Assembly (NCBI GenBank): GCA_002179805.1 | Contig: NAVB01000857.1 | Location: 1 to 64,000, forward strand | Reading direction: 5' to 3' | DNA: 64,000 bases | Origin: Acanthamoeba lenticulata | Taxonomy: Eukaryota; Discosea; Longamoebia; Acanthamoebidae | Part shown: positions 39,001 to 57,900 of the stretch, one piece after another | Numbering within the stretch: position 1 is the first letter of the stretch | How the letters are laid out: each line of letters opens with the position of its first letter | Position numbers and translations under genes: made by a program | Notes under the pieces: model-generated | Seen by the model: the letters and a program-made list of their open reading frames with translations, nothing else | Databases searched by the model: none | What the model was told of the DNA's origin: nothing

Positions 39001-40530
39001 CGTGTCGGGCACCTTGGCGGCGCGCCAGAATGACTCCAGGTGCGCTCGGTGGGGGTCCATGCCCTTGCTGGCCACGTTGCCAACGACGTAGCCCTTCATT
39101 GGGATGGACCCCTCCGTCGAGTCGTCCTGGTAGTAGAGCCTGAACTTGCGCCCGGACTGCATACACGTGGACAAGATCCCACCCGCGCGTCAGTGTCTTT
39201 TGAAGAGCCGCGAGCCGCAAGGTTTCAGCGCGGGGAGGCAGGGACGGACCTCGAGCAGAGTCTTTTTCTTGAGAAGCTTGCTGTCCTGGACGGCCATCTT
39301 CCACCCGATCTTGTTTTTGTCGGTCGAGAGCAGAAGCTGGAACCCACCCCCGTCGGGCGTGCTGGCCGAGGACTGATGAATGAATCCCTCATGCACAGCC
39401 GATACGTGGCTCACGAGCACGATCGACTCGCCGGGCAAGACCTGGCCAAAGACCGAGACTCGGTAAGCCTCCCGTGCGAGTGCCAGGGCACCTCTCGCCG
39501 CAAAGGGGACGCGTACATTCTTGCCCGCTTTCTTGGGTCCGTTGCGCGGCCACACGGTGAACCAGCAGTTCTTGCTTCCGTTCTCCAGGGCGATGATGTA
39601 CGTGCCCTGATGCAACGCCTCACGCCTATGAGACTTCACGATCACCGCAGTGCGGCCGAGACAGGCCAGACCGGGATGGAGCAGGAGCGGCGCACCTGAC
39701 GGCCCTGGCCTGGCATCTTGGACCTCCGCTGGGGCACGCGGAGAGCGGGCGAGGCGCCAGCGGGGACCGGCACAAAGTGTCGGGCGAGGAACTTTTGCGT
39801 GGCGATGTGGCGCAGCTGGATCGTCTGGCCGTAGGCGAGCGGCGTCTTGGACTCGCGGCTGGCCGTCTCCTCTAGCTGCTGCTCTCGTCGCACTTGCTGT
39901 CCTCCCGAACAGAACCCGCCCAATGCTGTGATGAGAAAGCAGAGCCGCAGCAACAATGGCGATGACTCTAAATGAGGGCAACAGTTGCACCTCATCACTC
40001 TTGATCTCCTCGAGCGTGCGCTTGGAGCTACGAAGGGAGCGGCCGAGCGGTGCGGTCGCGGTGTCGGTCCGGTAGTTGGTGCGGGGCAGGATCTCAAACA
40101 AGGCATCTGCTAAGTTGCCCCACCCAGTGCCAGTGAGTGTCCGATAGAGCATGAATACATGGCGGCGAGAGGGACGAGGGAAAGAGGAACCGTGAGCGTA
40201 CCTTGGGAGTGCTGCTTCTTTTTCGGCCGCACGGCGAGCAAGTCGCCACTGGCAAGGACAAGAAATTATTTTTTTAAAAAAATGATAATATCATAGGCAT
40301 AACAAACTTGATACAGAATGTGTTTATTTTTATTGTGCAAAAAAAAAATTAAAAAATTAAAAAAATGGCAGCGTAGATGCGTACCGCTTGGTAGGCGCGA
40401 TGCACATTTCGTCGTCGTCTTCGGAGAGGAGGAGAACCACGTCACCGATTGACACCGGCTGCCTCTTGTCATCTGAGACTAGACCCTTCCCGGGGGCGCC
40501 GGGACCCGCTTGGTGCGGCAAACCCAGCAT
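27012..40530 (-). CDS. Inositol 1,4,5-trisphosphate receptor family calcium channel
   Basis: A large intron-rich gene for an IP3R/RyR-superfamily release channel, probably in the ER or contractile vacuole membrane. N-terminal exons: 40530-40385 (VSIGDVVLLLSEDD, beta-trefoil start), 40248-40202, 40106-39991, 39896-39696, 39633-39250, 39156-38964; these carry MIR-type segments (TPLAYGQTIQLRHIATQKFL). RIH-like helical exons follow between about 38000 and 29600, interrupted by a Lys/Asp/Glu-rich low-complexity stretch at 33120-33370. The channel part has VYFPLPAVC, five hydrophobic segments (28930-28170), the pore exon 28016-27853, the exon 27776-27675 with CFICSVARDKF, and the last exon 27589-27012 with HISGEHDLWHYLYFF and a coiled-coil tail. 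These are IP3R landmarks. The selectivity filter is atypical (QGGIIQ). Middle exons were not all delimited. Confidence 0.85.
33120..33380 (-). repeat. Charged low-complexity segment inside the IP3R-like gene
   Basis: Coding DNA for a Lys run followed by alternating Asp/Glu runs in the middle of the RIH region of the channel. Probably a disordered cytosolic loop. It is not conserved in the family as far as I recall. Confidence 0.7.
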
Positions 40531-40822
40531 GGAGGGCCTGCACGACCGCCGCAGTTATTTTCTGAACGTGTCTTGATGTTTTTCTTTTTTTTTCTTTGTG
40601 AAAGAAAAGATAAGAAAATGTGAGATCTTACGGAAATACCCGACAAGATGACCTCCACTCAGAAAAATGTGAAACGCGCACGGGAAAGTCAACCGTTCCA
40701 ACTCAGGCGCAACGTGGGAGCTCGTTTGCGTCGGGCGAAGCAATACTTGTGGAGCGCACGTAGCTAAGGCAGAAGTATTCAGCTTTTATCTAGCGAGGGG
40801 ACGGTGGACACGGCTGGCGGCC
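40531..40822. promoter_or_regulatory. Divergent promoter region between the IP3R-like and phosphatase genes
   Basis: 292 bp between two head-to-head start codons. Both promoters should lie here or be shared. AT-rich runs occur at 40575-40620 but no standard element was identified. Confidence 0.4.
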
Positions 40823-41827
40823 ATGTGGTATGACGATGACGTTGACGACGTCCAGTCTGATTTCAGCAGTGATTCATCTACGCACACAACGCCAAGTGCC
40901 TCCCCGGACATCTTCAAGCTTGCAGGAGGATTGCCTCGGGCTTTTGCCGTGACCATGGCAGAGACATCAATAGAATTGCCCCACAATCTGTACTCGGCCG
41001 CTCCGGGTTTGATCGGAATGGGCGCCCCGACTTGTGCCGACCACATTCGGAACTTGCATGCCCTGCATAACGTACGTCGTTTCTCGTGCAGCTGCTCACA
41101 CTCTCAGTCATACAACTGCTACCGGCCTTCTTCTCACGTTCGTACTTTTTTCAATTTCGAAAACCTCCAGGTGCGGTTGGTGATTAATCTGCGAGAGACT
41201 CCCAACTGTGCCGACTGGTTCGAGGGGTTGCCCGTTCGATCGGTTCACCTCCCCATTCCAAGCTATTGCGCGCCGTCACTGGAGACCATGGTCACCATCC
41301 TTGGCCTCATGCTGGAGGCACGTCAAGCACACGACGACGTGCAAGATGAAGGTGATGTAGCCATGGGCCGAACGACGACGACTACGCCAGCGGTGGCTGT
41401 GCACTGCCTGGAAGGCAAGGGCAGGACGGGAACTGTCTGTGCCGCCTACATGCTGTATAAGCACCGAGACTTGAGTGCTGACGAGGCAATGGCTCTCGTC
41501 CGAGCACGAAGCCCACTCTCCATTGAGAGCCGTGAGCAGGAGGAGTTCCTGCTTCACTTTGCCCGCCTTCGCGACGTGCGTGCCGACGACGGTCTGGCTG
41601 GCCTCCTTGCCGAGTGCCACTCCGCGACGAATTGCATGACAGCCGCAACACGAGAAGGCAAATTGGCTACTTCTGCTGCTGTTGTTGTTGTCCCGTCCAA
41701 GTGGCGCGCTCCGGCGCGATGTAGCTCTTCTCTGGCAACAACAGTAGTGAAGCGAGCGAGGAGAAGCGTCGGCGAAGATGTCGGCGAAGAGGACGACAGC
41801 GACGAATTGGGCTGGTACTGTTCTTGA
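40823..41827 (+). CDS. DUSP23-like dual-specificity protein phosphatase
   Basis: Two exons, 40823-41071 and 41171-41827, give 301 aa; the 99-nt intron is a multiple of three without stops, so unspliced RNA would also stay open. The catalytic loop HCLEGKGRTGT has the Cys nucleophile and Arg of the CX5R signature. The preceding segment GMGAPTCADHIRNLHALHN, then VRLVINL, and the following AYMLYKHRDLSADEAMALVR align with small atypical phosphatases such as DUSP23. In place of the usual IPDF general-acid segment the protein has IPSY, so the expected catalytic Asp is Ser. There is an N-terminal acidic and Ser-rich extension of about 45 aa and a disordered C-terminus. Substrate unknown; it is divergent from the IP3R-like gene. 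Confidence 0.85.
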   Translation: MWYDDDVDDVQSDFSSDSSTHTTPSASPDIFKLAGGLPRAFAVTMAETSIELPHNLYSAAPGLIGMGAPTCADHIRNLHALHNVRRFSCSCSHSQSYNCYRPSSHVRTFFNFENLQVRLVINLRETPNCADWFEGLPVRSVHLPIPSYCAPSLETMVTILGLMLEARQAHDDVQDEGDVAMGRTTTTTPAVAVHCLEGKGRTGTVCAAYMLYKHRDLSADEAMALVRARSPLSIESREQEEFLLHFARLRDVRADDGLAGLLAECHSATNCMTAATREGKLATSAAVVVVPSKWRAPARCSSSLATTVVKRARRSVGEDVGEEDDSDELGWYCS

Positions 41828-41962
41828 TACCCTCGCAAGAGGTAAACTTTGCACATAAAAAAAACACGAAGAAGCAGCCCAAGCTCATGGATCGGTTCTA
41901 AGTTGGGGAAAGCTTTTGGTTGAAGTGGCAGAGATTATCATGGTGAAGTGTAGGAGACCAAA

Positions 41963-42081
41963 AGGATACGACACGGTGGATTCCCGGGTGGTCGCCCACC
42001 CCAGTACTAACACCGCCTGGCGCAGCTTAACTTCGCTGTTCAGATGGGAAGCGGTGCTTTCTGCGCAGTATGGCCGTATCC
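41963..42081 (-). rRNA. 5S ribosomal RNA
   Basis: A 119-nt sequence with 5S features: it begins GGATACGGCCATACTG, contains CCCATCTGAACAGCG and GAAGTTAAGC (the universal 5S loop), and ends CGTATCC, which pairs with the 5' end. A run of four T at the 3' end (41963-41960 on the minus strand) is a Pol III terminator. Single dispersed copy, with a tRNA gene 111 bp upstream on the same strand. Confidence 0.95.
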
Positions 42082-42192
42082 GTCATATGTGCTCATCTGT
42101 ACAAAGGCCAGCTTGAAGGTCAACACAAGTGTTCCTTACCAGTCTGTCGCATTCGGCTGGCCCGCAAGCCAACTAAACATAAAACGAAAAGA

Positions 42193-42264
42193 AGGGGGCG
42201 CCCGGGTTTGAACCGGGGACCTGACGATCTGCAGTCGCCTGCTCTACCACTGAGCTACGCCCCC
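42193..42264 (-). tRNA. tRNA-Cys (anticodon GCA), intronless
   Basis: 72 nt folding as a full cloverleaf: acceptor stem GGGGGCG/CGCCCCC, D arm GCTC-AGTGGTA-GAGC, anticodon loop CTGCAGA (anticodon GCA), T arm CCCGG-TTCAAAC-CCGGG and discriminator T. CCA is not encoded. T runs just downstream (TTTTCGTTTT on the minus strand, about 42181-42190) serve as the Pol III terminator. Confidence 0.96.
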
Positions 42265-42355
42265 TCCACAGTTTTCATCTAAATAACTGCAGTATTCACA
42301 AAAGCACTTTTTCCTGTCCTTAAATTGCTCCCCAATTTCATCTTACCCTCTGCGT

Positions 42356-43435
42356 ATGGCTGAAGTGGACAAGAGGGTGTGCGTGGAGGACCTCATGGTG
42401 GAGCTGGTTTCTCTTATTTTCCAATTTGTGGAGCCCCCTGCCCTTCCCGCGTGCGGTGCCGTGTGCCGACGTTGGAGTCACGCCCTCCAATATCTGCTTG
42501 TTGTTCGCCCAAGCACCAAGCTCCCGCGCGTGGCTCTACGAGGAGGCCAGCCCCCTTTTGCAGCCCTCGTGGCGGGCAAAGGCTGGCTGACAACACTGCA
42601 GTGGGTGCGCTCCAGTGGGTGCATTTGGGACGATCGCGTCTGCTCCAGCGCAGCCAAGGAAGGCCACCTGGCCGTGCTCCAGTGGGCGCGTGCCAACAAC
42701 TGCCCATGGGACGAAAACACCTGCTCAGCGGCTGCTCTGGGAGGCCATCTGGCCGTGCTTCAGTGGGCGCGTGCCAACGGCTGCCCATGGAATAGTGAGA
42801 CATGCACCATGGCAGCCTTTCAAGGCCACCTGGCCGTGCTCCAGTGGGCGCGCGCCAATGGATGCCCATGGAACGAGGCCATCTGCTTCCTTGCGGCCAG
42901 GGAGGGCCACCTGGATGTGCTCCAGTGGGCGCGTGCCAACGGCTGCCCGTGGGACACATGGACCTGTACAAATGCGGCCGTAAATGGCCACCTGGCTGTG
43001 CTACAGTGGGCGCGCACCAATGGATGCCCATGGGACCGGTGGACCTGCAGGAAAGCAGCTTCCAATGGCCACCTGGCCGTGCTCCAGTGGGCTCGTGCCA
43101 ACAACTGCCCATGGGACGAAAACACCTGCTCAGCGGCTGCTCTGGCAGGCCATCTGGCCGTGCTCCAGTGGGCGCAGGCCCATGGCTGCCCGGTGGACGA
43201 GAGGACATGCTCCAACGCAGCCAAGGGAGGCCACCTGGCCGTGCTTCAGTGGGCGCGCGCCGTTGGATGTCCTTGGGACGAATACACCTGTGCTTATGCA
43301 GCTCTGGGAGGCCACCTAGAGGTGCTTCAGTGGGCCCGTGCTAATGGCTGCCCGTGGGACAAGCGCACCCGCATCTATGCGAAGAAGTTCCCAGACGTGC
43401 TCGAGTGGGTGCGCGCCAATGGCGGCCCAGAATAA
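42356..43435 (+). CDS. F-box plus ankyrin-type repeat protein (intronless)
   Basis: 359 aa in one exon. Residues about 9-48 (LMVELVSLIFQFVEPPALPA, then CRRWSHAL) form a degenerate F-box, which would recruit Skp1 in an SCF ubiquitin ligase. The rest is about ten tandem repeats of 26-27 aa built on GHLAVLQWARANGCPWDE followed by TC and AA positions; these are the divergent ankyrin repeats common in Acanthamoeba and its giant viruses, and would bind substrate. Repeat units are very similar to one another in DNA as well as protein, suggesting recent expansion. The lack of introns contrasts with its neighbours. An AATAAA hexamer overlaps the stop codon. Target unknown. Confidence 0.85.
   Translation: MAEVDKRVCVEDLMVELVSLIFQFVEPPALPACGAVCRRWSHALQYLLVVRPSTKLPRVALRGGQPPFAALVAGKGWLTTLQWVRSSGCIWDDRVCSSAAKEGHLAVLQWARANNCPWDENTCSAAALGGHLAVLQWARANGCPWNSETCTMAAFQGHLAVLQWARANGCPWNEAICFLAAREGHLDVLQWARANGCPWDTWTCTNAAVNGHLAVLQWARTNGCPWDRWTCRKAASNGHLAVLQWARANNCPWDENTCSAAALAGHLAVLQWAQAHGCPVDERTCSNAAKGGHLAVLQWARAVGCPWDEYTCAYAALGGHLEVLQWARANGCPWDKRTRIYAKKFPDVLEWVRANGGPE
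42630..43420 (+). repeat. Tandem ankyrin-repeat-coding units of about 78-81 bp
   Basis: About ten consecutive copies of a unit containing the conserved DNA core GGCCACCTGGCCGTGCT followed by CCAGTGGGCGCGTGCCAA. Some pairs, such as those around 42690-42770 and 43080-43160, are nearly identical. Confidence 0.85.
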
Positions 43436-43436
43436 A
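43431..43436 (+). terminator. AATAAA overlapping the stop codon of the ankyrin gene
   Basis: The sequence GAATAAAG contains both the in-frame TAA stop (43433-43435) and an AATAAA hexamer. Poly(A) sites would then lie only a few tens of bases after the stop, consistent with the convergent neighbour starting at 43518. Further AATAAA-like sequence lies near 43503. Confidence 0.45.
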
Positions 43437-43517
43437 GTCCTCAAAGGAATCTTGAGATTTCAACGTGAGATTAATGTTAGTCAAAAACATTGAAGTAATA
43501 ATAAAATAAATGATTGA

Positions 43518-46500
43518 TCACAGACGATCGTCTCCCACACGGGCAGCCAGAACGCTGAGACGTAGCTTCTGCGCCTTCCGCCGGCGCGCCCACGCGATCG
43601 ACGCCACCACGATCACGCCCACCACAAACGCCACCGCCACTGGAATCGCCACTGCTGTCGCCACGATCAGCGCCAGGTTGTCGTCGCTGCTTCCGCCGCC
43701 ACTGCCATCGCCGCCTCCCGAAGACTCGCCGAGCAGGAGGCCCAGCGAGAGGCTCGGGTCATATTCAAGCGACTGCTTGAACGCTGGCAGCACCAGCTCA
43801 AGCCTCAGCTGTGATCTTGTCGTCACCTCACCATCTTCCGTCGTCGTGGAGTTGACGAAGGCGAGATCGTGGGCGAGGCGGGCGAAGAGGCCGTCGGCCA
43901 GGGCCACGTCAAACACCTCCACGGCCACCACCACGCCCGCTTGTTGTGCAGTCCGTGCCGCAGCGGCAGGCGTGGCGAGCCGGACGAGGTAGGTGGTCAT
44001 GTCGCGCTTGGGCGTGTCGCTCTTTCGAATGATCTCCACCTCGACTGGCTCGTTATGATTATTATTGTTGTTGCTGGTCATCGCTTGCGCGAGAAGCGCA
44101 ACCAGGTCGTACTTCAGCGTGAAGCCTCCCTCGCCGAGTACGGAGGCGTCCGAGGAGGTAAGGTTGAGAGACCACTTGACCGAACCGGCGCTCACGACAA
44201 AGTCTGTCTCGGCAAATGACGCCGTCGTCGCCTGCCGATGGAAGGTAAACGTCTGCGCGAAGCTCGTCGAGTTGTCCAGCGCAGCCTCGTAGATCCACGT
44301 CGTCGAGTTGTTGTCCGCTTGCCGCACGTTGTAGGAGGTCGGAGTCACCGAGTCGTTGTTGCTGCCTCCGCTGGAAGCGATCACGTTGGCGAGGCTCAGC
44401 GAGACGCCCACCTGCCCATCGTTGTTGTTGACTTCTGTTTTGGTCGAGCCCGTGACCGAGACTGCCGGGGTCGAGTTGCTGAAGGTCGAAGTCGTGTTGA
44501 TCACTTGCGACGAGGCGATGACCACAGGTGTCGATGATGGTGACGGCCGCGGGCAATCGTCTGCGCCACGTGTACATGATTCCGTTTAACGTGTGGAGGT
44601 CATGACCCTTGCACCTCAATGGTAGCAAGAACACGAACCACGAGAGGCAACTCGAGCGCCAGGCGAGGAGAACGAGACACTCGAGGTGTCCTGCACTTGC
44701 GAGCAGCACTGCATTGCTCCATTGCACTTGAAGCCTATGAATGAATAAACCAGTAAATGGCCATGGCTAAATAAAAATGCAAAATCAAGTTCGAAAAATA
44801 AAATAAAATAAAATCAAAATAGAAATCAAAATCAAAATAAATTAAATATTGATTTTTCGCTTTCATGTACCCAAGTAGGCGATGTCGTTGGTCGAGTTCT
44901 CAGCCACAATGTCCACCGCGAGACTGCTGCGCAGAAGCCATAGACCGCCGTTCGCCACATACAGCCCTGTACCCTCCATCCAAAGATTGACCCATCATCA
45001 TCACCATTGTAGCAGCGGGGGGGGGGAGCTTCTGGCGTTTTGGTCATGTACCGGTGGAATTGCCCTGGATGGTGATCGACGTGCTCGCCGTCTGCTGCCA
45101 CTGTCCAGTCCGGCACATGGGACCACCAATCGATGGTGACTGTCAGATCCGAGGCCCTTTCGCCCCTCTCTTCAACGGTATCGGCAGCGGTCGAGTTTTA
45201 TGCGTGCAACAGCTCGTCATGCGTGTGGAACCAACAATCATCGGGCCAACTCGACGCCACCGTTGTTGACACGGGAGTGCTCTTCGACGGCGGTTTGTGG
45301 AACCAGCAGGGCACCTGCAAGATCCAAGCCCTCCGCACAGGTTCTCTCTCTTCCTGCTTACTGAAAAATTTAATAACTTTAACATTAATTAAGTTGAATG
45401 AATAAATTAAAATATAATTATATTTCAAAACATAAAAATAAAAACCTATCTCACTCGCGGCAATATAAATGGGCAGGTGTGAAATTGGGCAGGTTGGGTG
45501 TGTGGACGCAGACCGGTTCGACCACAATTTACGTTTCGCCGGCCAACATCAGCACCGTGGCCTATGGTACGCTCCTCAATCCACGATCACTTTTTTGCTC
45601 TTTTGGCTCATGGTGCGGGTCCCAATCAGGCGTGAACGTGGCGGGAGGCAGCTGGCGCTCGACAAGTGGGAGCTTGGCCACCATCGGTGGCAGGACCAAC
45701 GCCGTCGGCGTGCTCCTCAATGGCACCACCCCGATGGAGCAGAACGGGCGGCTCAACATCACCATCGACTGTGCCGGCTCGGCGGGCATCGAGAGCTTGT
45801 GCGCCGCCGTCCTTCTCCAGCAGCAAGCTGCTGCCTCCGGCTCACCGGTGTGGAAGCAGAACCAGACAACGACCGTCCGCGTCAACGGCGCTTATGGTGC
45901 GCCCTTCCCTCCTCAAGGATGATGGCCAAACTCAATCATCAGCTGGCGAGTTGACTGGTGCGGGCAGGCATTTATGTGAAGCCGAACACGCAAAAAGACT
46001 TGGGACTGGGACCGACGGCCAAGTCGGCGGATGTGTTGGCCTGGGAGGTCCACCTGCCGCCCGAGTAGAGGACCACGCCTGTTTTAATAAAAAAATGAGC
46101 TCAAGGTCATTGCTCCCCAGGACAGACGTCCGATGTACCCATGCAGTCGTTCAGAACAAAGGCGATTGGAGACTCTTGCACCCACTTGCCCAGGAGGACC
46201 ACACCTGATGCACTCCACATTTTCAGCAAATTGATCCATTTTTTCGTAGGACGTACGAACCAGTGCCCGCTGTACACGTCATGGCTGAGTTACGTGTGCC
46301 CGAGTTCTGTAGCCATTGTCCTCCCTGTTCCACCCTCACGCCTGGCGTATGGCATCGGGATCATCAGTCACAATGGACAAAGAGAGAGACACAGAGAGCG
46401 AGAGGGAGAGATCGGCAAGACACGTGCCTGTTCCAGATCCGACTTGCATGTACAACGCACCTCGCTGTTTCCACAGACCGCCTGCTCCCACATGCACTCC

Positions 46501-47782
46501 TGCACTCACGTCATTGTTGGGCGGGAGTATGAGCAACACGATTGACCACGAGCTGCTGTAACGAGCTTGATGTTGACGGGGGGGGGGGAGCAAGCACCTC
46601 CAACGCCACTCTGCAACTCAAATTGGGCATCTCCACTTTGCTCCCACACGCCTCCAGATTGAACGAGGACCGCTAAAGAGAAGAACAACAGCGCGAATGA
46701 ATGATGTGGTTGCAGACAAACAATGCGGGATGAGTTGGCTCATGTACTTTTTAGGCGAGATGTAAAGTTGGCCGAGCCTGTCTGATTCCAAAGGCCTGAC
46801 CCACTGAAGTAAATGCTTGCACCATCTGATCGTTTTAATAGTTAGAAATTGACAAAACCAAACAAAATAATAATACGAAGAAGAGAAGCGTACTCGCAGA
46901 GTTCACGCCACTGAGGCGCAAGGCAGCTTGCTGCTGCCATGTCCCATCAAGTATATAGACACCTGAGTGCATTGAGTTAAACAACTTAAAGAAGGCGAGA
47001 TATGAGTGGGAGTTCTGGATGTGTACCACGTGCAGAGGTATGATGGATCACGAGCTCGGCTGCCTGGGTCCATGTACCATTATCCAATCTGACTGCCGCT
47101 GCACACCATCATGTGAGATGAAGGTGCACTAGGGACTAGGAAAGGAGATCACGCGTGCCTTCAGGTGGTACATCTGCAGTAATGTTTATGGTCAGGGGAA
47201 CTGCTTGGTACAGTGTTGCCGTGGTGTTGAGCTGTACCGCAACTTGAAATAAAGTTTAAAGACCAGGTTGGCCATTTAGTTCATGTAGGGCTGAGAGAGA
47301 AGCTTCTACGTACAGCCCTTCACTTCCAATGGTCCAGATCCACTCAAGCTAAAGCTTGAGCTGCCTTGAATGGAGAGCCACACTGCTTCTGTGGTCATGA
47401 TCACAGTAGGCCCAGAAAATCTACAGCTCAAAGAAGCCATTAAAAGAAAAGGACCACAAGAAAAACTAAACTAAACTTAACTAATCTAAACAAAACTAAG
47501 AAGACGCACATAAGCTGGATGTTTGACGTAGTGGCCACCAAGGTTGGTTCAGCATATTGACCTGGAGCCACCTCCATTGAGGTGCAACCAGCTGCAATGC
47601 CACTACTAATTTGTCCAGTTGTGTTGGATGGTGACACAACGCAGGCATAACCTGCACCTGCCAAATGGAGTTGGAGGGAAAGGAAAAAATGAAGCAAGAG
47701 GGAGGCAAAGGAAAGTACTGGTATAGGCCTGTGCCAAGGTGAAGAGCACGAGCACCACAGCGAGCTGTGTGTGTGTCCTCAT
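43518..47782 (-). pseudogene. Putative type I surface repeat protein, copy A, with an internally inverted segment
   Basis: Homologous over its length to the collinear copy B (50421-54770). It starts at 47782 with a signal peptide (MRTHTQLAVVLVLFTLAQA), followed by many small exons, each coding one or two repeats of the form G-hydrophobic...W-x-Q...hydrophobic strand (for example GVHVGAGGLWKQRGALYMQV and GGVWEQSGDAQFELQ). The last exon, 44560-43518, codes an extracellular Asn/Ser/Thr-rich domain, a membrane helix (LALIVATAVAIPVAVAFVVG) and a short basic tail. The pattern suggests a secreted beta-helix-like ectodomain anchored at the surface; no named family was recognised. The central exons (45104-45992) lie on the plus strand, so this copy cannot make the full protein as assembled. 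It could be a pseudogene, an assembly error or an invertible locus. Confidence 0.65.
45104..45992 (+). other. Inverted internal segment of surface protein copy A
   Basis: On the plus strand this block encodes, in order, SGTWDHQSMV, SSCVWNQQSSGQLDATVVDTG, GVWTQTGSTTIYVSP, GVNVAGGSWRSTSG, PVWKQNQTTTVRVNGAYG and the exon start GIYVKPNTQ. Copy B encodes the same series on the minus strand, between repeats that copy A still encodes on the minus strand at each side. The left junction falls between minus-coded QWQQTAST (45050-45103) and plus-coded SGTWDHQ; the right junction falls after ACACGCA, next to minus-coded GPSPKSF. Introns inside the block are inverted too. The heptamer CCAGTCC occurs in inverted orientation close to both junctions. 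Confidence 0.8.
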
Positions 47783-48242
47783 GCAAGTTTTCTGATTGTG
47801 TGCAGGAAAGATAAATTGCCTGGTCCCTTAATTACTAACATTCATTAAATAACGGCCAAGCCGCAGGTCAGACGCGTCCATGCATGCGGCATCGGTAGTG
47901 GTGCTTCCCGCCGACATGACCTCCACGGAGATGCGTCGACTAGCCCGGTGGCACGTCGCCGTGCTCTTCTTTTTTGGGATTCTCGTCAAAATGTACCAGT
48001 TGTTACGTCGCCCGCTGGCGCAGTGCGAGCGCCCTCTAAAGGCCCCGACGCCCGCTGGCGCAGTGCGAGCAACACCTCTGTGGCCTCAGCGTGTTGTGGG
48101 GTGGACACATCGGGAGCAAGTTTTTTTTCCGCCTTCCGCTTGCCCTATTTTGGCAACTCGTAGCTTTGGCGCGAACGCACCAACGGCCGTATCGCAAAAG
48201 CAGCCTGCGTGGAGAAGCGAAGCCCGCAAGAAGCCGACAATC
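47783..48242. other. Spacer between surface protein copy A and the P-loop gene
   Basis: 460 bp between two divergent genes. It holds a 22-bp direct repeat but no convincing conserved gene. The plus strand is open from 47880 with a hydrophobic segment, which may be an upstream exon of the P-loop gene or chance. Confidence 0.35.
48009..48070 (+). repeat. Two 22-bp direct repeats
   Basis: The sequence CGCCCGCTGGCGCAGTGCGA with two further shared bases occurs at 48009-48030 and again at 48049-48070, separated by 18 bp. It lies in the spacer upstream of the P-loop gene. Function unknown. Confidence 0.85.
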
Positions 48243-50152
48243 ATGGACACTCCACCGGGAACAACAAAGACCCTCAGGTGGGACGAGTACACGATCTCCA
48301 AGTTCCGCGCAGGCCGAATCGATTAATGATGAGCGCATTCGCGGCGTGACCTTCCGCCAGCTTTTGAACTACAACGACATCGAGTTGGCGCAGTTGGCAG
48401 ATGGTGACCTCAGCACACAGGTACCTGTACAGCTCAAATAGGATATTTGCAAATATGGTCCTTACCTTTTTTTTGATTTTATTTTGAACGGCTAGTCGGC
48501 TTTCCGAAGACTGCAGCAGTATGCAAAGGGCTACCAGTTTTGGGCGGATGCGTTGGTTGACGATGGACCCATCTTTTCCCTCGGTCGGAGTTGCTTCGTC
48601 ATCACGCCACAGCTCGTGGAGGCAGCACTGCCACCAGAAGCGCAGGAGCAGCTACGCGAGCTCGCTATTGACAACGCGGAGGATCCGGCGTTGGCCTTGA
48701 GCGAGCTCCTCGAAATGCTTGCCAATTCCGCAGACTTTCCTAACGGCCGGTTTAGCCTACCTCGGCTCGACCTTGCCCATCGTGCTGAAGCGCTAAACGA
48801 CCTGGCCCAACTGATCCAGCGGCTCCACCTGGGCAGAGCCCATGGGAACGGCGGCACGGGACGCATACTGCTAGGGCCAAAGGGAACCGGCAAGTCGGCC
48901 TTCCTGCAGGCCCTCGCCATCGCAACGGCCCTCCTGTGCCCGAGGCTGACAGTTGTCTACATCAACTATGCCTCGGTGGTGCACGACCTATCGAGCCCCA
49001 TCTCGCCAGCGCATATGCTGCATTACGCGGACCTCTGCTTTCGAGCCGACGCGGGCGCCCTGGCCAACAACTCGTCCCACTTGCCGAACCCCAACGACTG
49101 GCAGGCCACCTACGCCAAGCTGACAACCTCGTCCACGCAGCGGTTCCTCATCATTGCCGACGAGTTCAACAAGGTCTACTCGACCAAAGGCCTGGCCGAA
49201 ATCGTGGCGCAGTTCCAATTGCTCGGAACGCAACGGAGGGTCGGGTGTCTGCCGTGCTTTCGGGCAGCAGCGCAGCCCTGTTCAACCTATGCTACGGGCA
49301 CATTGATCCAGCCACGCGGTTGAAGTATCCCAGCTACAATGGCGTAAGCTTGAACTCGGGACGCTACACCCACCTGCGCATGCTACCCGCCCGCGGTCGT
49401 GAGCAATTCCGCCGTGTGCTCGAGCACATCCAGCACGCTGCACAGCAAGGCTATAAGGAGCATCTGTCCTTTAACCAGCGTGATCTCGAGAAGGTCAACG
49501 TGGCGCTCAGGGACGAACGTCGGCTCATGCAGCTCTACGCACTCACGGGAGGCAAGTTCCGATATCTCCAGGAGTTCTTCACGGCGAGCACGGACAGCCA
49601 GCCCGGCGCCTACTCAACATTCATTAGCCGCATCACACGCGACTTCAACGAGCAATGGGCAGCTGACCCGCACTTCCAGGGGGTGATGAAGAAGCTTGTG
49701 GAAATGAGGGAAGCCCTCCGGGCGGCCGCCCGCGGGACCGACGGCTCAGCCGACGTGGCGTTCTGGGCCGAGGTATGGGTCGACGCCCAGCAGCTGTCCG
49801 CTGCCGGTCTCTCGGAGTACCATGCCTACGAGCTCGGCGACAAGAACCTTCTCTGTGTGGAGTCGACCAAGGCTGGCCTGCGGGTCACGTTTGAGGCTGG
49901 CATCCAGGAGGATCTGTGCCGGGTACACGCCCACTTGGAGAGGCAATCTTCGTGTAAGCCTGTACTCGTTTTTTGCCTCTGTGGCATCACTTTCTCCTCC
50001 CATAACAGGCCCGACTGTCGAGTGACGCTGGGGGCGTATGAGTGCGTGTGCGCTATCCTTACGGGCAGCTCGGTATCGACGCCGAAGACCTTGTGCTCAA
50101 GTCGCTCGAGCTCCCGCCAACTCGAAGCAACGTGTCTACCGTGCGTCGTTGA
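48243..50152 (+). pseudogene. P-loop NTPase gene with reading-frame break(s)
   Basis: The codable part reads: an exon ending at 48420 (GVTFRQLLNYNDIELAQL), an exon from 48496 with SAFRRLQQYAKGYQFWADAL, a Walker A motif (LLGPKGTGKSAFLQAL), a Walker B-like motif (RFLIIADEFNKVY), then, in another frame, SAVLSGSSAALFNLCYG, which fits a sensor-1 strand. The change of frame at about 49235-49245 has no intron signal and looks like a single-base loss. A splice 49953/50043 would add a last exon ending at 50152. The 5' end is unclear: the ATG at 48243 is in a different frame from the first conserved exon. It is an AAA/STAND-like ATPase of unknown role; a Crinkler-type effector NTPase is possible but not shown. 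It sits between two paralogous surface genes on the other strand. Confidence 0.6.
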
Positions 50153-50404
50153 GAAGCGGGAAACGCTACAGCACCAGGGCCTAAATGATATGAAGCGACT
50201 AGAGCGCGTTGAACAAGCAGCGGCAACACCTACGGCAATCGAAAAGCTGCAGCGTCCGGCGTTACCGCTGAACACGTCCGGAGCTCTTTCGGCCGCTTTC
50301 GGGCTCATAATCTGCCACTTCATCGGCACACAAATGCGACTTATTCCTTTTTACAAGCGTGGACAGAGAGCAGGGGCAGACAGAGAGAGAGAGAGAGCGA
50401 TCAC

Positions 50405-50410
50405 AATAAA
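50405..50410 (+). terminator. AATAAA poly(A) signal, plus strand
   Basis: AATAAA hexamer following a GA-rich tract, about 250 nt after the proposed stop of the P-loop gene and just before the convergent surface gene ends at 50421. Confidence 0.4.
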
Positions 50411-50420
50411 CTGATTACAT

Positions 50421-53400
50421 TCAAAGACGATCGTCGTTCACACGCGCCGCCAGACTGCTCATGCGGCTCAGACGCAACCTCTGTGCCTTCCGCCGACGCG
50501 CCCACGCGATCGACGCCACCACGATCACGCCCACCACAAACGCCACGGCCACTGGAATCGCCACTGCTGTCGCCACGATCAGCGCCAGGTTGTCGTCGCT
50601 GCTTCCGCTGCCGCCGTCTCCGCCGCTTGACGAAGGAGGTCCGTTGAGCAGGAGGCCCAGCGAGAGGCTCGGGTCATAGACCAGCGACTGCTTGAACGCT
50701 GGCAGCTCCAGCTCGAGCCTCAGCTGTGACAAGGTCTTCTTCACCTCTCCGGAGGAGGTTTGTGTTGTGGTGTTAATGAGGACAAGGTCGTGGGTGAGGC
50801 GAGCGAAGAGACCGTCGACCAGGGCCAAGTCAAACACCTCCACAGCCACCACCACGCTCGGCTGCTGTTTTGCTGTCGTGGTGCTGTTGGTGGAAGCCGT
50901 GGTATTTGTCGAGGAGTCGTTGCCAGCAGAAGCGGCAGTTGCGAAGCGGACGAGGTAGGTGGTCATGTCGCGCTTGGGCGTGTCGCTCTTCCTGATCACC
51001 TCCACCCCGACCGACTCGTTGTTTTTGAGAGCCTGAGAGACGAGCGCCACCAGGTCGTACTCGAGCGTGAACTCCTCGCTCAGAGTCGTGCTGTCTGACG
51101 ACGTGAAGTTGAGCGACCACTTGATCGCGCCGGCGCTGACGGCAAAGTCCGTCTCGGCAAACGACGTCGTTGTTGCCTGCCGATGGAAGGCGAATGTCTG
51201 CGCCACATTCGTCGTGTTGTCCAGCGCGGCCTTGTAAACCCACGTTGTGGGATTGTTGTTGACTTGTTGCACGTCGTAGGAGGTCGGGGTGACAAAAGAG
51301 GAGCCGTTGCCGTTGCCGCCGGTGGTCACGTTGGCCAGGTTGAGCGTGAGGCTCACGCCCCTCGAGGGCCCGTTGTTGACGGTGTCCGTTTTGGTGGAGC
51401 CCGTGACAGAGACCGTTGGGGTGGAGGTGCTGAAGGTGGCTTCCGTGTTGATGACCTCTGACGAGGCGACGAATGCTGGTGTCGATGACGGCGACGGCCA
51501 CGGGCAATCGTCTGCCGTTGTCGACACATCCAAGCAATTAATTGTGCAAAAATAAAAAAAGAAAAAAAAGAAAAGAGAACACGAACCACGAGAGGCGACT
51601 CCAGCGCCAGGCGAGGAGTAGAAGACGCTCGAGGTGTCCTGCACTTGCCCGCAGCACTGCATCGAATCATCGCACCGGAACCCTGCCGAACGCATAGTGG
51701 TCGGCATTCAAGCCAAACGTGTGAGCCAAAAGCGATGATAGCAGGAAGAGGCGGCACAGTCGGTCTTGCTTCGCACCGTAGGTGACGTCGTTGGTCGAGT
51801 TCTCGGCCAAAACGCTCACCGCGAGGCTGCTGCGCAGAAGCCACACGCCGCTGTTCGCCACGTAAAGTCCTGTCCATTCCCATCCTCATAAATGAGTCCT
51901 TGGACAGAGACAAGGGGGGATAGCGCATTGAAATACCGGTGGACTCGCCCTGGATGGTGATGGACGTGTTCGCCGTCTGCTGCCACTGCGTTTGCGGCAT
52001 CATGTGAATGCCTGCCCCCGTGCCAGCCAGTCAATGGCCCAACCCGTCAGCTGATGCTTGGTACGGTTGCACCGAATGCTGGGCCATCACCATCAACGAG
52101 GGGAGGAGAAGGCGAGGAGGCGCACACCATCGGCGCCATTGACGCGGATGGTCGTCGTCTGGTTCTGCTTCCAAATCGGTGAGCCGGAGTCCAGTTCCTC
52201 GAGCACCACGCCGCCGCATGAGTTCTCGATGTCCGCCAAGTTGGAACAGTCGATGGTGATGTCGAGCCGCCCGTTCTGCTCGAACAGGGTGGTGCCTTTG
52301 AGGAACACGCCGACGGCGTTGGTCCTGCCCACGATGGTGGTCAAGCTGCCACTTTTCGAAACCCAGCTGCCTCCCGCCACGTTCACGCCTGGTGCACATC
52401 GGTCGGTTGTTGCCCAACAGCCTTGTTAGGCGCCCTTGTTCCACCACAGAGCCAACCACCACAAAAACACGCACCAGAGGCCAGGGTGGTGTTGTCGAGT
52501 GGCGAAACGTTTATTCTGGTCGAGCCGCTCTGCGTCCACACACTCGACATGCCCAAGTTCACACCTGCCCATTCAAGAATGGCAACAAAATTCAATTATT
52601 TTGCGGTAAAAATCATAAAAAAAAAGAAGTGGAAAAAAAAAACCAAGAAAGAGAAAGAGAGAGGGACCGGTGTAGGGGGCTTGAATCTTGCAGGTGCCCA
52701 GCTGGTTCCACGAGCCGCCGTTGAAAAGCACTCCAGTGTCAGCAACGATGGCGTCGAGTTGGCCCGATGATTGTTGGTTCCACACGCATGACGAGCGGCT
52801 GCACTCGTTGAAGAGCACCGCGGTCGGTATCGGTGAGGAACTTGATCTGATGGCCACCATGGACTGATGGTCCCACGTGCCGGACTGATAAAAAGCCACA
52901 AACGACTGGGAACCACTGGTCGCGTCGACAAAAACGTTGGCCTTTGAGGTCCATTTGCCACCAAGGTTCAGGAGCACACCTGTAAAGTGTGTGTGTGTGT
53001 GTGTGTGCGTACAGCCCCGTTCTTGACCAGGATCACTTCATTTGAGGCAAAAGGACACGACAGTCCGTACCGGTGCCGCTGTTCAGAACGAAGTTGATCG
53101 CAGACTCCTGGGTCCACCTGCCGATGAGATTCACGCCTGATGCACACACCGCACCTCACCAGGGTGATGAGACATTTCTAAAAATGATAATTAAAAGAGG
53201 GAACTGAATGCACAAACCTTCACCACCATCATTGCAGGTGATGGTTGAGTTACGCGCGCCCAAGTTCTGAAGCCAGTGCCCGAGGATTCGAAAGCCTGGC
53301 GTCATCCATGGCTGGTGGTAAGCAGAAGGGAGAGAGTGAGAGAGAGAGAGAGAGGAGAATAAAGACACGTGCCTGTTCCGCTCTGGACGTGCATGTCAAC

Positions 53401-54770
53401 CACGCCATGCTGATTCCACACGCTGTTTCTTCCCAAATATAAGCCTGCAGTCACGTCATTGTAATCGAGGCTGGAGCATGAGCAATCTGGGTCTCATGGC
53501 CTCACAGACGCTAGCACACGGGCGGCGTATAAGGGGAGCAAGCACCCTCAGCGCTGCCATGCAAATCAAATGTGGCATCTCCGCTTTGCTCCCATCTGCC
53601 TCCCCCTTGCACGATTGCGGCTGAAGAGTGGCGAAGAAGGTGCTGGTGTTGGCAGCGGATGCAGGAGTAGTTGCCAACTCACGCACCACCCAAACGGTGA
53701 GTCCACGTACCTTGACTGCGCGCTGTGAAGCTGGCCGGGCCTGTCTGATTCCAAAGACTCACCTCATCAAGCGTAACGCCTCCGCCAGCTTCACATTGGT
53801 CAGCAAGGGAGACGTGTTGGATCACTCAAGACAACAAGACGAGTAAACGCACTGTAACTGCCCAAGCTGTTGACTTGCAGGGCAGCTTGCTGGTGCCATG
53901 TTCCACCACGCATCAAGACACCTGTTGTTGGTGTTAAAAACTGGCGAGGTGTGATGTGCAAAGGGACGTCTTGATACCAGTTGGACCAAAATGACTGATT
54001 GTCAGCTCAGCCGCTTGGATCCATGTACCGTTGTTGAGCTGTGCTGGCCCTGCACATCCAAGTGTGGTTCAGAGAAGGGGTCAGCTGAAGTATGCTTGTG
54101 GGCAATGAGGAGAGGACGTGCCAAGAGGGGAGGCATCTGTGTCTGTAATGTTCATGGTGAGAGGCACTTCTTGGAATAGTGTTCCTGTAGTGTTCAACAA
54201 AAACCCAACTTCAAGTAGAAAGTTGAGTCTATCAAAAAAAAGAAAAAGAAAACAACAAGAAGAGGGTTCAACACACAGTTCTTCAGTTCCAGTGGTCCAG
54301 GACCACCTAAACTAAAGTTGGAGCTGCCTTTTAGGGAAAGCCACACCTCTTCCCCTGCTGCTGTATTCGTGATGATGGTTGCCCCTTCAAATCTGTGGTC
54401 CATTAAAAAAACTGCTTTTTAAAATCACCAGCAGAGGAGGGACAATAATGAAGGAAGGGTTAGGACAGGTAAATGCGTACATAAGCTCTATTGAGTCAGT
54501 TGACAAGGTCAAAGTCGGTTCCTCATATTGGCCTGGAGTCACGTTCATGGAAGTACACCCACCTCCAATGGCATCAAAAATCACACCCGTTGTGTTGGCC
54601 ACGGGCGACACAGTGCAGGGAACAGTTTGGCCTGCCCATACACATTTGAATAAGAAAACCTTCAGCCAACAGGCGAAACAAAAAAGACATGTGGGTTGGT
54701 TACTGATATGGGCCTGGGCCAAGGTGAGAACAAGAACCATGACGGCCAGCTCTGCGTGTGACCTCCACAT
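50421..54770 (-). CDS. Putative type I surface repeat protein, copy B (collinear)
   Basis: It starts at 54770 with the signal peptide MWRSHAELAVMVLVLTLAQA. Small exons then encode repeats matching copy A one for one, including GGCTSMNVTPGQYEEPTL, WLSLKGSSNFSLGGPGPLEL, GVNLIGRWTQESAINFVL, GGKWTSKANVFVDATSGSQS, SSCVWNQQSSGQLDAIVADT, SVWTQSGSTRINVSP and PIWKQNQTTTIRVNGADG, then QWQQTANTSITIQGESTG. The last exon, 51511-50421, codes a Thr/Asn-rich membrane-proximal domain with many N-glycosylation sites, one membrane helix and a basic cytosolic tail (WARRRKAQRLRL). The W-x-Q repeat with regular beta spacing suggests a beta-helix or stacked-strand ectodomain, possibly for adhesion or recognition. 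No known family was recognised. Exon boundaries are only partly resolved. Confidence 0.7.
53325..53362 (+). repeat. GA-rich microsatellite in an intron of surface protein copy B
   Basis: A GAGAGAG tract between repeat-coding exons. Copy A has a comparable GA-rich tract near 46375-46415 at the matching intron. Confidence 0.7.
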
Positions 54771-54992
54771 CCTGGCGACAGATCTAGCAGAATGACAACC
54801 TTTTTGCCCGGCTCCGGTCCATTTTTTACTTGGCTCTCTCATTGGCTGCTTTTATTGCGCGTTGATGCAAGCTTGATTGCAGTGAGGGTATTTGTTTCTT
54901 TCATTTCCAGCACTTCCTTTTTTTCCTGCCACTGGGCAAAACAGACAAGAACACATCCTGCAGGACTGACCAGCAGGACGGATTCCATCTCG

Positions 54993-57900
54993 CTATTGGT
55001 CCAGTTCCACCAACTTTTCGAGAACGCAAGTGCACTCCTCTTTGCTTGACGACGCTCCCTTCCCCTCCTCTTCGTCTTCCTTTTCCTTCCCCTCTTCTTC
55101 CTCCTTCTCCTCTTCTCCCTCCTCTTCTTCTGCTTCTTCCTCCTCTTTCTGCTCCTCTTTCTCCTTCTGCGCTTCTTCAGGCTGTGGCATCGAGGATTGC
55201 TCCTCAGCGGGGTTGAGTGTCGATGATGAACCTGCTTGCGCAGCCTTCTTCATCAACTGCTTGAGGCCGCGCGAGATAAACTTCCTGTTGGTTGTCGAAC
55301 GAACGGTTGTCAGAAGGATGGCAGCCCGACGCCAAAAGAAAAGATAAATACAAATAAAAATAGAATAAAAATAAAAATAAAAATAAAAATAATAAAAAAA
55401 GAACTAAAGGGTGACGTACGCAATGTGCATGCGTGCTCTCGTTACTGCCACCAGCTGCGTACCGCTGATGCTGATTGAGCGCTTTTCGGTATCGACCAGC
55501 ACGACAACGCCGTACTTGTTTTCGATGGTCGCTTTGCTGAGCTTGTCCACCGATACGGCCGCCTCGGGAACGTAGGCGATCGTCATGACTGCCAACGGCT
55601 TATCCGCGTCGTAGTTCGCCAGTGGCTGCGGCGCCTCGGGACTCGTCGTGTTAGAAAGGTTCGCTGCGGGGGCGGTGGGCTCGGCCTTGACCGCTCCGAA
55701 ATGCTTGCCTAGATGCGCCACAAAGGCGCTGACGCACTCACGCGCGCCAACCACCTGAATCTGACGGTCCACCACGCCGGCCGCGACGTCAAAGGACTCG
55801 GCAAGCGTGGACCACTTTGGGGCGACCTTGGGATTGCTTGGCAGCGCCAGCGAGCAATCGACGACGATCTTGGTGCGCAGGCGGTTGGCCTCCACCAGCA
55901 CACTCTCGAAGTCGTCCGCGTGCTCGCCGAGCACGTCGACCACCATGTGCGCGGGCGTGTCCTGGAAAAAGACAGCCATCGCTGGGTCGCAGGAGGCGTG
56001 GAGCTGCTTAAGCTTCGTGTGCATGTAGGCGCGCACGAGCTGGTCCTTGGGTCCAATCTTGAACTGGATTCGGCGACGCACGACGGCGCTCAGGAGGACG
56101 CCGATCTCCTGCCAGGCGCGGGCCACGCCCTCGGGGGCGCGGCCCCCGATCCGCACGTAAGAGAGCCGGCCAGACTCGGAGTAGCGGACGATCACGTGGG
56201 CAGAGACTGCGTGGCGCTCCTCAATCGCCACGAGGGCCGGCGGGCGTTTGGCCAAATACATGGCCAGCCCGGCATCGGCCAACTGCTCCGCGCGATCGAA
56301 CCTCTCTTCGCGAATCACCGCCAACGAGACGCCGGCGATGTGGACCGGCCCGGCGAGCTGTTCATGGAGACGCTGGAGGCAGGCCTCGGTGCTCACCTCG
56401 ACCGTGGCCAGCTTTTGCCACACGTGCACATGGCCCAGCGCCTGAGCAGCCTCCTTGTCCTGCTCCGGTCCGACAAGCGGTCTGAGCAGCGCGAGAAGCT
56501 CGGACTCGACCTGCTGCTGCGCCAGCTTGGCGAGGGCCAACGTGTCGCAGCCGAGGCAAAGCTTCCAGCAAGGCACATCGCCTTGGAACGACGTTACCCG
56601 CACGGTGTTGTTGGGCAGGGCGATGTCATAGAAGGATGCGATCTTGCGATCGGCGGGCGCAGGCCTGTATCTGATGTAGGCCGACGTCCCATCGCGCAAC
56701 GCAATAAAGGTGGTCGCGACGATGTTGAGTTCCTTCTGGACGAGCTGCCGCACCTCCTTAGCAGTCGTGTCTTCCGACAAGCCCGACAGCAGCAGCACCG
56801 CTTCGGTCGGCTTCTCCGGACCCTTTGCGGCCGCACTGCCGTTAGCGGCCTTGGCCGGCTTGGCCGGGGCCTTGGCTTGTGGCGCCGCTGTTGGGACCGT
56901 TGGAGCCGCGGCGTTTTTTGCTGTGGGCTTGGCCTGTGGCGTTGCTGCCGTCGTCGCCGCCACCGGTGGCTTTGCCGCGGTGGCTGGAGTTGGGACAGCG
57001 GCCTTTGGCGACGACGCACTGACTAGCGCGGTGATGTGTGCCAAGCAGGTATTAACCGGCTTGCTGTCGCCAACCAGGCGCAGACAGCGCGTGGGCTCGC
57101 GTTCAATGAACACGCCGGGCGCGAGCTTCTTGAGCTTCTCCACAATCAGCTCTGCAGCGAGGTCGGCAGGGAGAGGCGGCGAGAGGACGACGGTGACCCG
57201 CGCCCGCGCGGAGAGGACCTGGTTGTACAGCGCACGGACGGCGGTCTCGTTGATCGCCACCGTAAGCACCGTTACAGAGCCCACGCCATTGCCGCCAGCT
57301 TCCGGTGGCTCTTGGAGGACATGCAGCGCCGAGTCGCAACTAAAGTTCAGAAGCGGCTGAAGGTTGCGCCGGAAGCACGACCGCACGAGCGGGTCCTTGA
57401 ACTTGAACGTGGCCTGCTTCCGCGGGAACGCGGCCAGGGCGACCTCGAGGGCGTGCCAGGCGGCCTCCAGGGTCGAGGCGGAGACGCGGCCGGAGAGGCG
57501 GAGCTCAAAGGTCTTCTTGCCTTGCTCCTTCTGGCCGACGACCGGCGTGATGACCACGCCGTATCTTCGCCCGATGTGATCGAGCACGCCGGACTGCTTC
57601 TTGAGGTAATAGAGCATCACGGGCTCGTTGAGCGCCTGGATGCGCTCGAGCACCGCCGGGGACCCGGCCGTCGGCGGCGACCGGACCTGCACCGCCTCGG
57701 CGGCAAGCGAAGCTCGGCGCGGGCTGGTCGCTGCCCGCGGGGAGACCATCGGCGCGGTGGCTGGGGCTGCCTTAGCAAGGCCAGCTGACACCTCTTTGGC
57801 AAAGGAGCTCGGCGGGAACCACTGGCGATGCTGCGGGACAGGTCCGGCGCTGCTCGTCGACGAGGCCGTATTGGGAGCATCAAACCTCAACGTCGGCGTC

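What the first reader, a model, noticed from the sequence alone, without database searches (positions are those of the whole stretch)
45104..45992. Intragenic inversion of about 0.89 kb in a surface-protein gene
Copy A encodes its N-terminal and C-terminal repeats on the minus strand but a central block of exons on the plus strand. Copy B (50421-54770) encodes the same repeats in one orientation and order, so the ancestral layout is clear. Restoring the block would rejoin split repeats on both sides (GIYVKPNTQ with WQQTAST, and GPSPKSF with QSGTWDHQ). The heptamer CCAGTCC lies in inverted orientation near both ends. It may be a haplotype or assembly error, a recent breakage, or an invertible cassette that switches a surface protein on and off, which would be new for an amoeba.
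Basis: partly seen in the sequence, partly recalled or inferred. Interest (0 to 1): 0.85.

Follow-up and report, generated by a model that had tools for sequence, protein, structure and literature searches.

The report
Recent flip inside duplicated surface gene
One of two neighbouring copies of a surface-protein-like gene, probably from an amoeba, has a 0.89 kb piece turned backwards; the rest of the gene looks undamaged and nothing at the ends looks like a switch, so it is most likely a recent accident that broke the gene.

Summary
Copy A (43518-47782, minus) has the same 18 exons as copy B (50421-54770, minus; 982 codons), but 45104-45992 (second half of exon 12 to first half of exon 15) lies on plus. 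All 14 related gene units read elsewhere in the assembly keep one orientation, so A is derived. The flip is A's only visible lesion: exon pieces are open, 34 of 34 expected splice sites are present, and 16 of 16 whole exons agree with B modulo 3; hence it is recent. The switch reading lacks support: the best inverted match near the ends is the 7-mer, off-register with the breaks and near chance (30 of 400 random pairs do as well within +-20 nt). No second orientation was listed in the 48.5 Mb assembly. Best explanation: an end-joining inversion that truncates A, with a stop 6 codons past the join. In-frame skipping of exons 12-15 is possible but needs a 1172-nt intron where others are 56-136 nt. 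Assembly error is unlikely but not excluded; no reads were available. The species was not identified.

The parts
43518..47782 (-). Copy A: surface-protein-like gene (hydrophobic start, W-centred repeats, long last exon with one hydrophobic segment; these features judged by eye) interrupted by the inversion
45993..47782 (-). Copy A 5' part: exons 1-11 and first half of exon 12, all open, splice sites present
45104..45992 (+). Inverted block: second half of exon 12, exons 13 and 14, first half of exon 15, coding strand now plus; right end uncertain by 1-2 nt
43518..45103 (-). Copy A 3' part: second half of exon 15, exons 16-18 with the hydrophobic segment and stop codon, all open
45972..45974 (-). 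First in-frame stop met when exon 12 reads on into the inverted block, 6 codons past the join
45105..45111 (+). CCAGTCC, 1 nt inside the left break
   Evidence: near chance
46003..46009 (+). GGACTGG, about 11 nt outside the right break
   Evidence: near chance
50421..54770 (-). Copy B: intact collinear paralogue, 18 exons, 982 aa
   Evidence: exon ends chosen by eye
51987..52887 (-). Segment of copy B that corresponds to the inverted block

Best explanation
A real, recent, copy-neutral inversion of about 889 bp inside copy A, made by two breaks in exons 12 and 15 that were rejoined without homology (non-homologous or microhomology end joining). Shown: the inversion in the assembly, its break ends, the intact look of everything else, and the lack of inverted repeats beyond chance. 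Inferred: that it exists in the organism, the repair route and the effect. On transcription from A's own start, exon 12 runs into the reversed block and meets a stop 6 codons on. The predicted product is a fragment without the C-terminal hydrophobic segment, or no product if the mRNA is degraded. Copy A is thus a very young pseudogene, or a broken allele whose intact homologue may still exist; copy B and other relatives remain.
For: Opposite-strand alignments with E down to 6e-85; all 18 exons accounted for. 14 of 14 other units keep one orientation for exons recognised at 24 bits or more; by my reading of that list 10 of the 14 show block exons together with 3' exons, 2 carry only one of these parts with a contig or stretch end in the way, 1 is a truncated fragment (C286) and 1 shows no block exon above the limit. 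C286 and B align in one piece across the left break. Splice sites of A: 17 donors (15 GT, 2 GC; B also has 15 and 2, at the same exons) and 17 acceptors AG; 16 of 16 whole exons agree with B modulo 3. A-lineage changes in the block by codon position: 8,9,17; 4,3,8; 6,5,13 with three outgroups; synonymous share 16 of 34, 7 of 15, 10 of 24 against about 28% neutral, p 0.013, 0.095, 0.10. Simulated neutral divergence before the first disabling change (assumed indel:substitution 0.1 or 0.05): block alone 95% limit 3.7% or 5.0%, block plus 3' part 1.3% or 2.0%; A and B differ by 18% in aligned codons of the block and 20% in the 3' part. The exon-12 and exon-15 pieces together are one nucleotide over a multiple of three, a small scar. 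A human precedent with a like signature (one blunt join, one 10-bp insertion, no homologous repeats, exon skipped) is the PRKN exon-5 inversion, PMC8421701 (passages and discussion read).
Against: No reads, so neither an assembly error nor a mixture of orientations can be excluded. Exon boundaries were chosen by eye to fit frame and GT/GC-AG, so splice and phase intactness is partly built in; openness of the homologous cores is not. Only one of three outgroup tests is below 0.05, and the same test does not see constraint in the block of intact copy B either (synonymous 9 of 34, 3 of 12, 12 of 42; p 0.64, 0.69, 0.52), so it has little power to tell intact from decaying. The decay bound rests on assumed mutation ratios. 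Repair by end joining is inferred from the lack of homology.
Confidence: 0.72

Rival explanations
1. Assembly artefact: the collinear gene exists in the organism and the 889-bp piece was placed backwards.
For: Everything else in A looks intact, which is also what a wrong assembly of an intact gene would give; no reads could be seen.
Against: Wrong orientation would be expected to need inverted repeats of about overlap length or a gap at both ends (general knowledge). The longest exact inverted match within 100 nt of the ends is 7 nt (8 within 200 nt), and the window holds no N. No collinear version was listed elsewhere in the assembly.
Confidence: 0.14
2. Both orientations coexist as alleles on homologous chromosomes and the assembly shows one (this overlaps with the best explanation). 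If the organism is Acanthamoeba, its genome is stated to be highly polyploid and aneuploid (PMC12210455, passage seen), so a young inversion need not be fixed.
For: Youth of the event.
Against: No second contig with the other orientation or near-identical sequence was listed in the 48.5 Mb assembly; a collapsed assembly could hide it.
Confidence: 0.25
3. The inversion is tolerated: splicing jumps from exon 11 to exon 16 and leaves out the half exons and the reversed block, giving an in-frame protein some 250 residues shorter that still has its C-terminal segment.
For: Junctions on both sides are phase 1 in my gene model, so removing exons 12-15 keeps the frame; each half exon lacks one splice site. 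Skipping of an inverted exon is documented in PRKN, there with 93 bp of intron included.
Against: The new intron would be 1172 nt, against 56-136 nt for the other introns of A and B; genes with short introns are usually spliced by intron definition (general knowledge), which would not favour skipping.
Confidence: 0.15
4. Invertible cassette that switches the protein on and off.
For: Block and flanks are all open, as a switch would keep them.
Against: No inverted repeats beyond chance; heptamer off-register with the breaks. No second orientation listed. None of 14 related units shows a strand switch. The yeast flip/flop systems described in PMC6692504 use inverted repeats, for example 2 kb in Ascoidea rubescens (passages seen).
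Confidence: 0.03

Closest known systems
Human PRKN exon-5 intragenic inversion (PMC8421701; passages and discussion read)
   Same: Copy-neutral inversion inside a gene; joins without homologous repeats and with a small scar; effect through the transcript
   Different: Breaks there are in introns and enclose one exon of a 77 kb segment; here both are inside exons and enclose two whole and two half exons in 0.89 kb; no RNA data here
Factor VIII (F8) inversion of haemophilia A (as described in PMC8421701)
   Same: Inversion that splits a gene
   Different: Recurrent, between inverted segmental duplications; none here
Flip/flop mating-type switching of yeasts (PMC6692504; passages seen)
   Same: Eukaryotic DNA inversion
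   Different: Reversible, between inverted repeats, for example 138 kb in Komagataella phaffii; nothing of the kind seen here
Ureaplasma MBA surface-antigen locus (PMC3047005; search listing and start of abstract only)
   Same: Inversion that touches a surface-protein gene
   Different: Specific inverted repeats there (a recombinase is recalled, not read); no such repeats here
Dictyostelium ComC supersandwich domain (Pfam PF22933; link to Dictyostelium recalled)
   Same: Weak profile match of A's last exon (E 0.029)
   Different: 14.5 bits against a cut-off of 24, so not a member by this test; not listed for B's last exon

Membership tests
Intragenic inversion by end joining | Segment reversed relative to collinear relatives, copy number unchanged | tested here: met
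Intragenic inversion by end joining | No extended homology at the joins, small scar | tested here: met
Intragenic inversion by end joining | Joins present in the organism's DNA | not testable with these tools
   no reads
Invertible switch (site-specific or homologous) | Inverted repeats at both ends, in register with the breaks | tested here: not met
   7-mer only, off-register; as good in 30 of 400 random pairs within +-20 nt; gapped score reached by 72% of 150 random pairs
Invertible switch (site-specific or homologous) | Both orientations found | tested here: inconclusive
   only one orientation listed in the assembly; reads not available
Invertible switch (site-specific or homologous) | A recombinase that acts on it | not tested
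   no search made
Pseudogene | Reading frame or transcript interrupted | tested here: met
   strand switch inside two exons, stop 6 codons past the join
Pseudogene | Relaxed constraint | tested here: inconclusive
   A-lineage changes in the block are third-position biased, p 0.013, 0.095, 0.10; the test shows no constraint in intact B either
ComC supersandwich family (PF22933) | Profile score over the curated cut-off | tested here: not met
   14.5 bits, cut-off 24

The most novel reading that the evidence does not exclude
The block flips in both directions in living populations through an undescribed route that needs no inverted repeats, or both orientations are kept as alleles in a polyploid nucleus, so that the C-terminal anchor of a surface protein is switched on and off.
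Probability: 0.04. Interest if true: 0.85.

Novelty: new member of a known kind. Interest (0 to 1): 0.3.

Why it matters
If real, it is a clean snapshot of gene loss by rearrangement: a duplicated gene caught soon after an inversion, before visible point-mutational decay, beside an intact reference copy. It also allows a direct test of what a short-intron splicing system does with half exons and a reversed block. It does not, on present evidence, show antigen switching in an amoeba.

Tried and rejected
Homologues of the B protein in the 5.8-billion protein collection: 7991 candidates scored, none at E <= 0.001, so no orthologue of A or B from another genome was found there. Pfam gave no family over cut-off for the four pieces tested. 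AlphaFold models of exon 12 of B (mean pLDDT 38) and of the last exon (mean pLDDT 34) are too poor to use; no fold search was run. A profile of the W-centred repeats, scanned over loci L009-L038 and window 40001-56000 at 9 bits or more, showed mixed strands in the window itself and in two loci. L010 holds two opposed genes. In L033 a 10-residue match of 11.7 bits lies within an apparent copia-like element (zinc-knuckle motif, judged by eye) and was taken as chance. Of the 20 remote loci, 15 had no repeat match at all, so they say little. In one search one opposite-strand match (L015 664-702, 26 bits) abuts the same-strand match of the last exon and was treated as chance. A first polarisation script gave no result, most likely because of a wrong program option, and was rerun. 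Gene conversion was considered for the A/B identity step from the first half of exon 12 (67%) to the second half (82%), which coincides with the right break; it was set aside because the N-terminal exons also match less well in an outgroup (149 of 319 codons covered, against 176 of 195 in the block). It was not tested further. Searches of the paper library with Acanthamoeba, inversion, surface protein and genome assembly (2 papers), with Acanthamoeba, genome, scaffolds, ploidy and gene conversion (2 papers), and for eukaryotic invertible surface antigens (15 of 27 listed) showed no title or abstract start that reports such a case; this covers only those searches and that library.

Full report
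What is there. The window carries two tandem copies of a surface-protein-like gene on the minus strand. Copy B (50421-54770) has 18 exons and an open reading frame of 982 residues: a hydrophobic start, many short repeats centred on a tryptophan, and a long last exon with one hydrophobic segment (exon ends set by eye from frame, homology and GT/GC-AG; the protein features also judged by eye). Copy A (43518-47782) has counterparts of all 18 exons. Nucleotide alignment puts 45106-45355, 45468-45908 and 45962-45992 on the opposite strand of B, with same-strand matches on both sides. The block is 45104-45992; the right end is uncertain by 1-2 nt. Both ends lie inside exons: exon 12 and exon 15 are each split in two.

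Which arrangement is older. In loci cut from contigs C666, C286, C1493, C988, C34 and C1180 of the same assembly, 14 gene units of the family could be read. In all 14 the exons recognised at 24 bits or more share one strand (one 26-bit opposite match was discounted). By my reading of that list, 10 of the 14 show block exons together with 3' exons, 2 lack one of these parts at a contig or stretch end, 1 (C286) is truncated, and 1 shows no block exon above the limit. C286, a fragment close to B with gaps that are not multiples of three in its last exon (my reading of the alignment), runs collinearly with B across the left break. The inversion is therefore specific to A among the copies seen. The family is large: 153 matches to the last exon of B at E <= 0.001, counted exon-wise and as a lower bound.

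How old it is. Apart from the flip, A looks whole: 17 of 17 donors (15 GT, 2 GC) and 17 of 17 acceptors AG, as in B, and 16 of 16 whole exons agree with B in length modulo 3. No exon piece has an internal stop. Because I chose the boundaries, part of this is built in; the openness of the homologous cores is not. Changes assigned to the A lineage with three paralogues as outgroup are third-position biased in the block: 8,9,17; 4,3,8; 6,5,13 by codon position, over 176, 107 and 176 of 195 codons. Their synonymous share (16 of 34, 7 of 15, 10 of 24) lies above the neutral 28%, with p 0.013, 0.095 and 0.10. Against my reading, the same test gives no sign of constraint in the block of intact copy B (9 of 34, 3 of 12, 12 of 42; p 0.64, 0.69, 0.52), so it discriminates poorly and I rest the dating on the lack of lesions. 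A simulation of neutral decay with assumed indel ratios gives a 95% limit of 3.7-5.0% divergence since the flip from the block alone, or 1.3-2.0% if the 3' part is counted as unselected too. A and B differ by 18% in aligned codons of the block and 20% in the 3' part. The flip is thus young relative to the A/B split.

How it arose. Site-specific or homologous inversion needs inverted repeats in register with the breaks. Around the two ends the longest exact inverted match is 7 nt within 100 nt and 8 nt within 200 nt; the gapped score of 9 (60-nt flanks) is reached by 72% of 150 random pairs. A match as long as the heptamer within 20 nt of both ends occurs in 30 of 400 random pairs, and within 100 nt in 92.5%. 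One copy of the heptamer is 1 nt inside the left break and the other about 11 nt outside the right break, so it does not mark the break points. By alignment the two would lie on the same strand in the ancestral arrangement, and so could not have driven the flip (inference). The exon-12 and exon-15 pieces together are one nucleotide over a multiple of three. This fits breakage with end joining, as proposed for the PRKN exon-5 inversion in people (PMC8421701; passages and discussion).

What it does. Read as it stands, exon 12 enters the block and meets a stop 6 codons later. The expected product is a shortened protein without the C-terminal hydrophobic segment, or nothing. Because the junctions around exons 12-15 are phase 1 in the model, skipping from exon 11 to exon 16 would keep the frame, but this would require a 1172-nt intron where the others are 56-136 nt. 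I consider loss of function most likely; no expression data were available.

Could it be an artefact or a mixture. The window has no N, and no repeat that would misplace the piece was found. Searches of the 48.5 Mb assembly listed, besides the block itself, only copies at 72-78% identity over longer stretches (85-90% over 40-57 nt), and none in the opposite layout; the tool scores only its best candidates, so absence is not proven. Reads were not available, so artefact (about 0.14) and coexistence of both orientations remain open. The latter is plausible if the organism is Acanthamoeba, which PMC12210455 calls highly polyploid and aneuploid (passage). The organism itself was not identified by any search; Acanthamoeba is my guess from composition and neighbouring genes.

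Verdict. A real-looking, recent, gene-breaking inversion of a known kind; the switch hypothesis has no positive evidence that a plain inversion would not also give.

Noticed in passing
window 48553-50400: A P-loop gene on plus between the two copies (AAA/NACHT-like Pfam matches, all below cut-off) seems to change reading frame near 49240 without an obvious intron (read by eye); it may be broken or hold a sequencing error.
   Followed up: partly
window exons 4 and 9 of both copies (donors after 47159, 46428, 54122, 53373): Two introns in each copy appear to use GC instead of GT donors, shared between A and B.
   Followed up: partly
window exon 12, about 45993/45104 in A: A/B nucleotide identity steps from 67% to 82% at the right break of the inversion; constraint is likely, gene conversion not tested.
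   Followed up: partly
L014 5268-6435 (C286): Truncated, gapped fragment closest to copy B; an example of ordinary decay in this family.
   Followed up: partly
L033 about 3167-4300 (C208): What looks like part of a copia-like element (zinc-knuckle motif) beside or inside a distant family member.
   Followed up: no
G000, many contigs: Large family of proteins with this last exon: 153 exon-wise matches; no homologue at E <= 0.001 in the protein collection.
   Followed up: partly
window 42356-43435 and 40823-41827: An ankyrin-repeat gene (with an F-box-like match just below cut-off) and a dual-specificity phosphatase gene lie next to copy A's 3' end.
   Followed up: no
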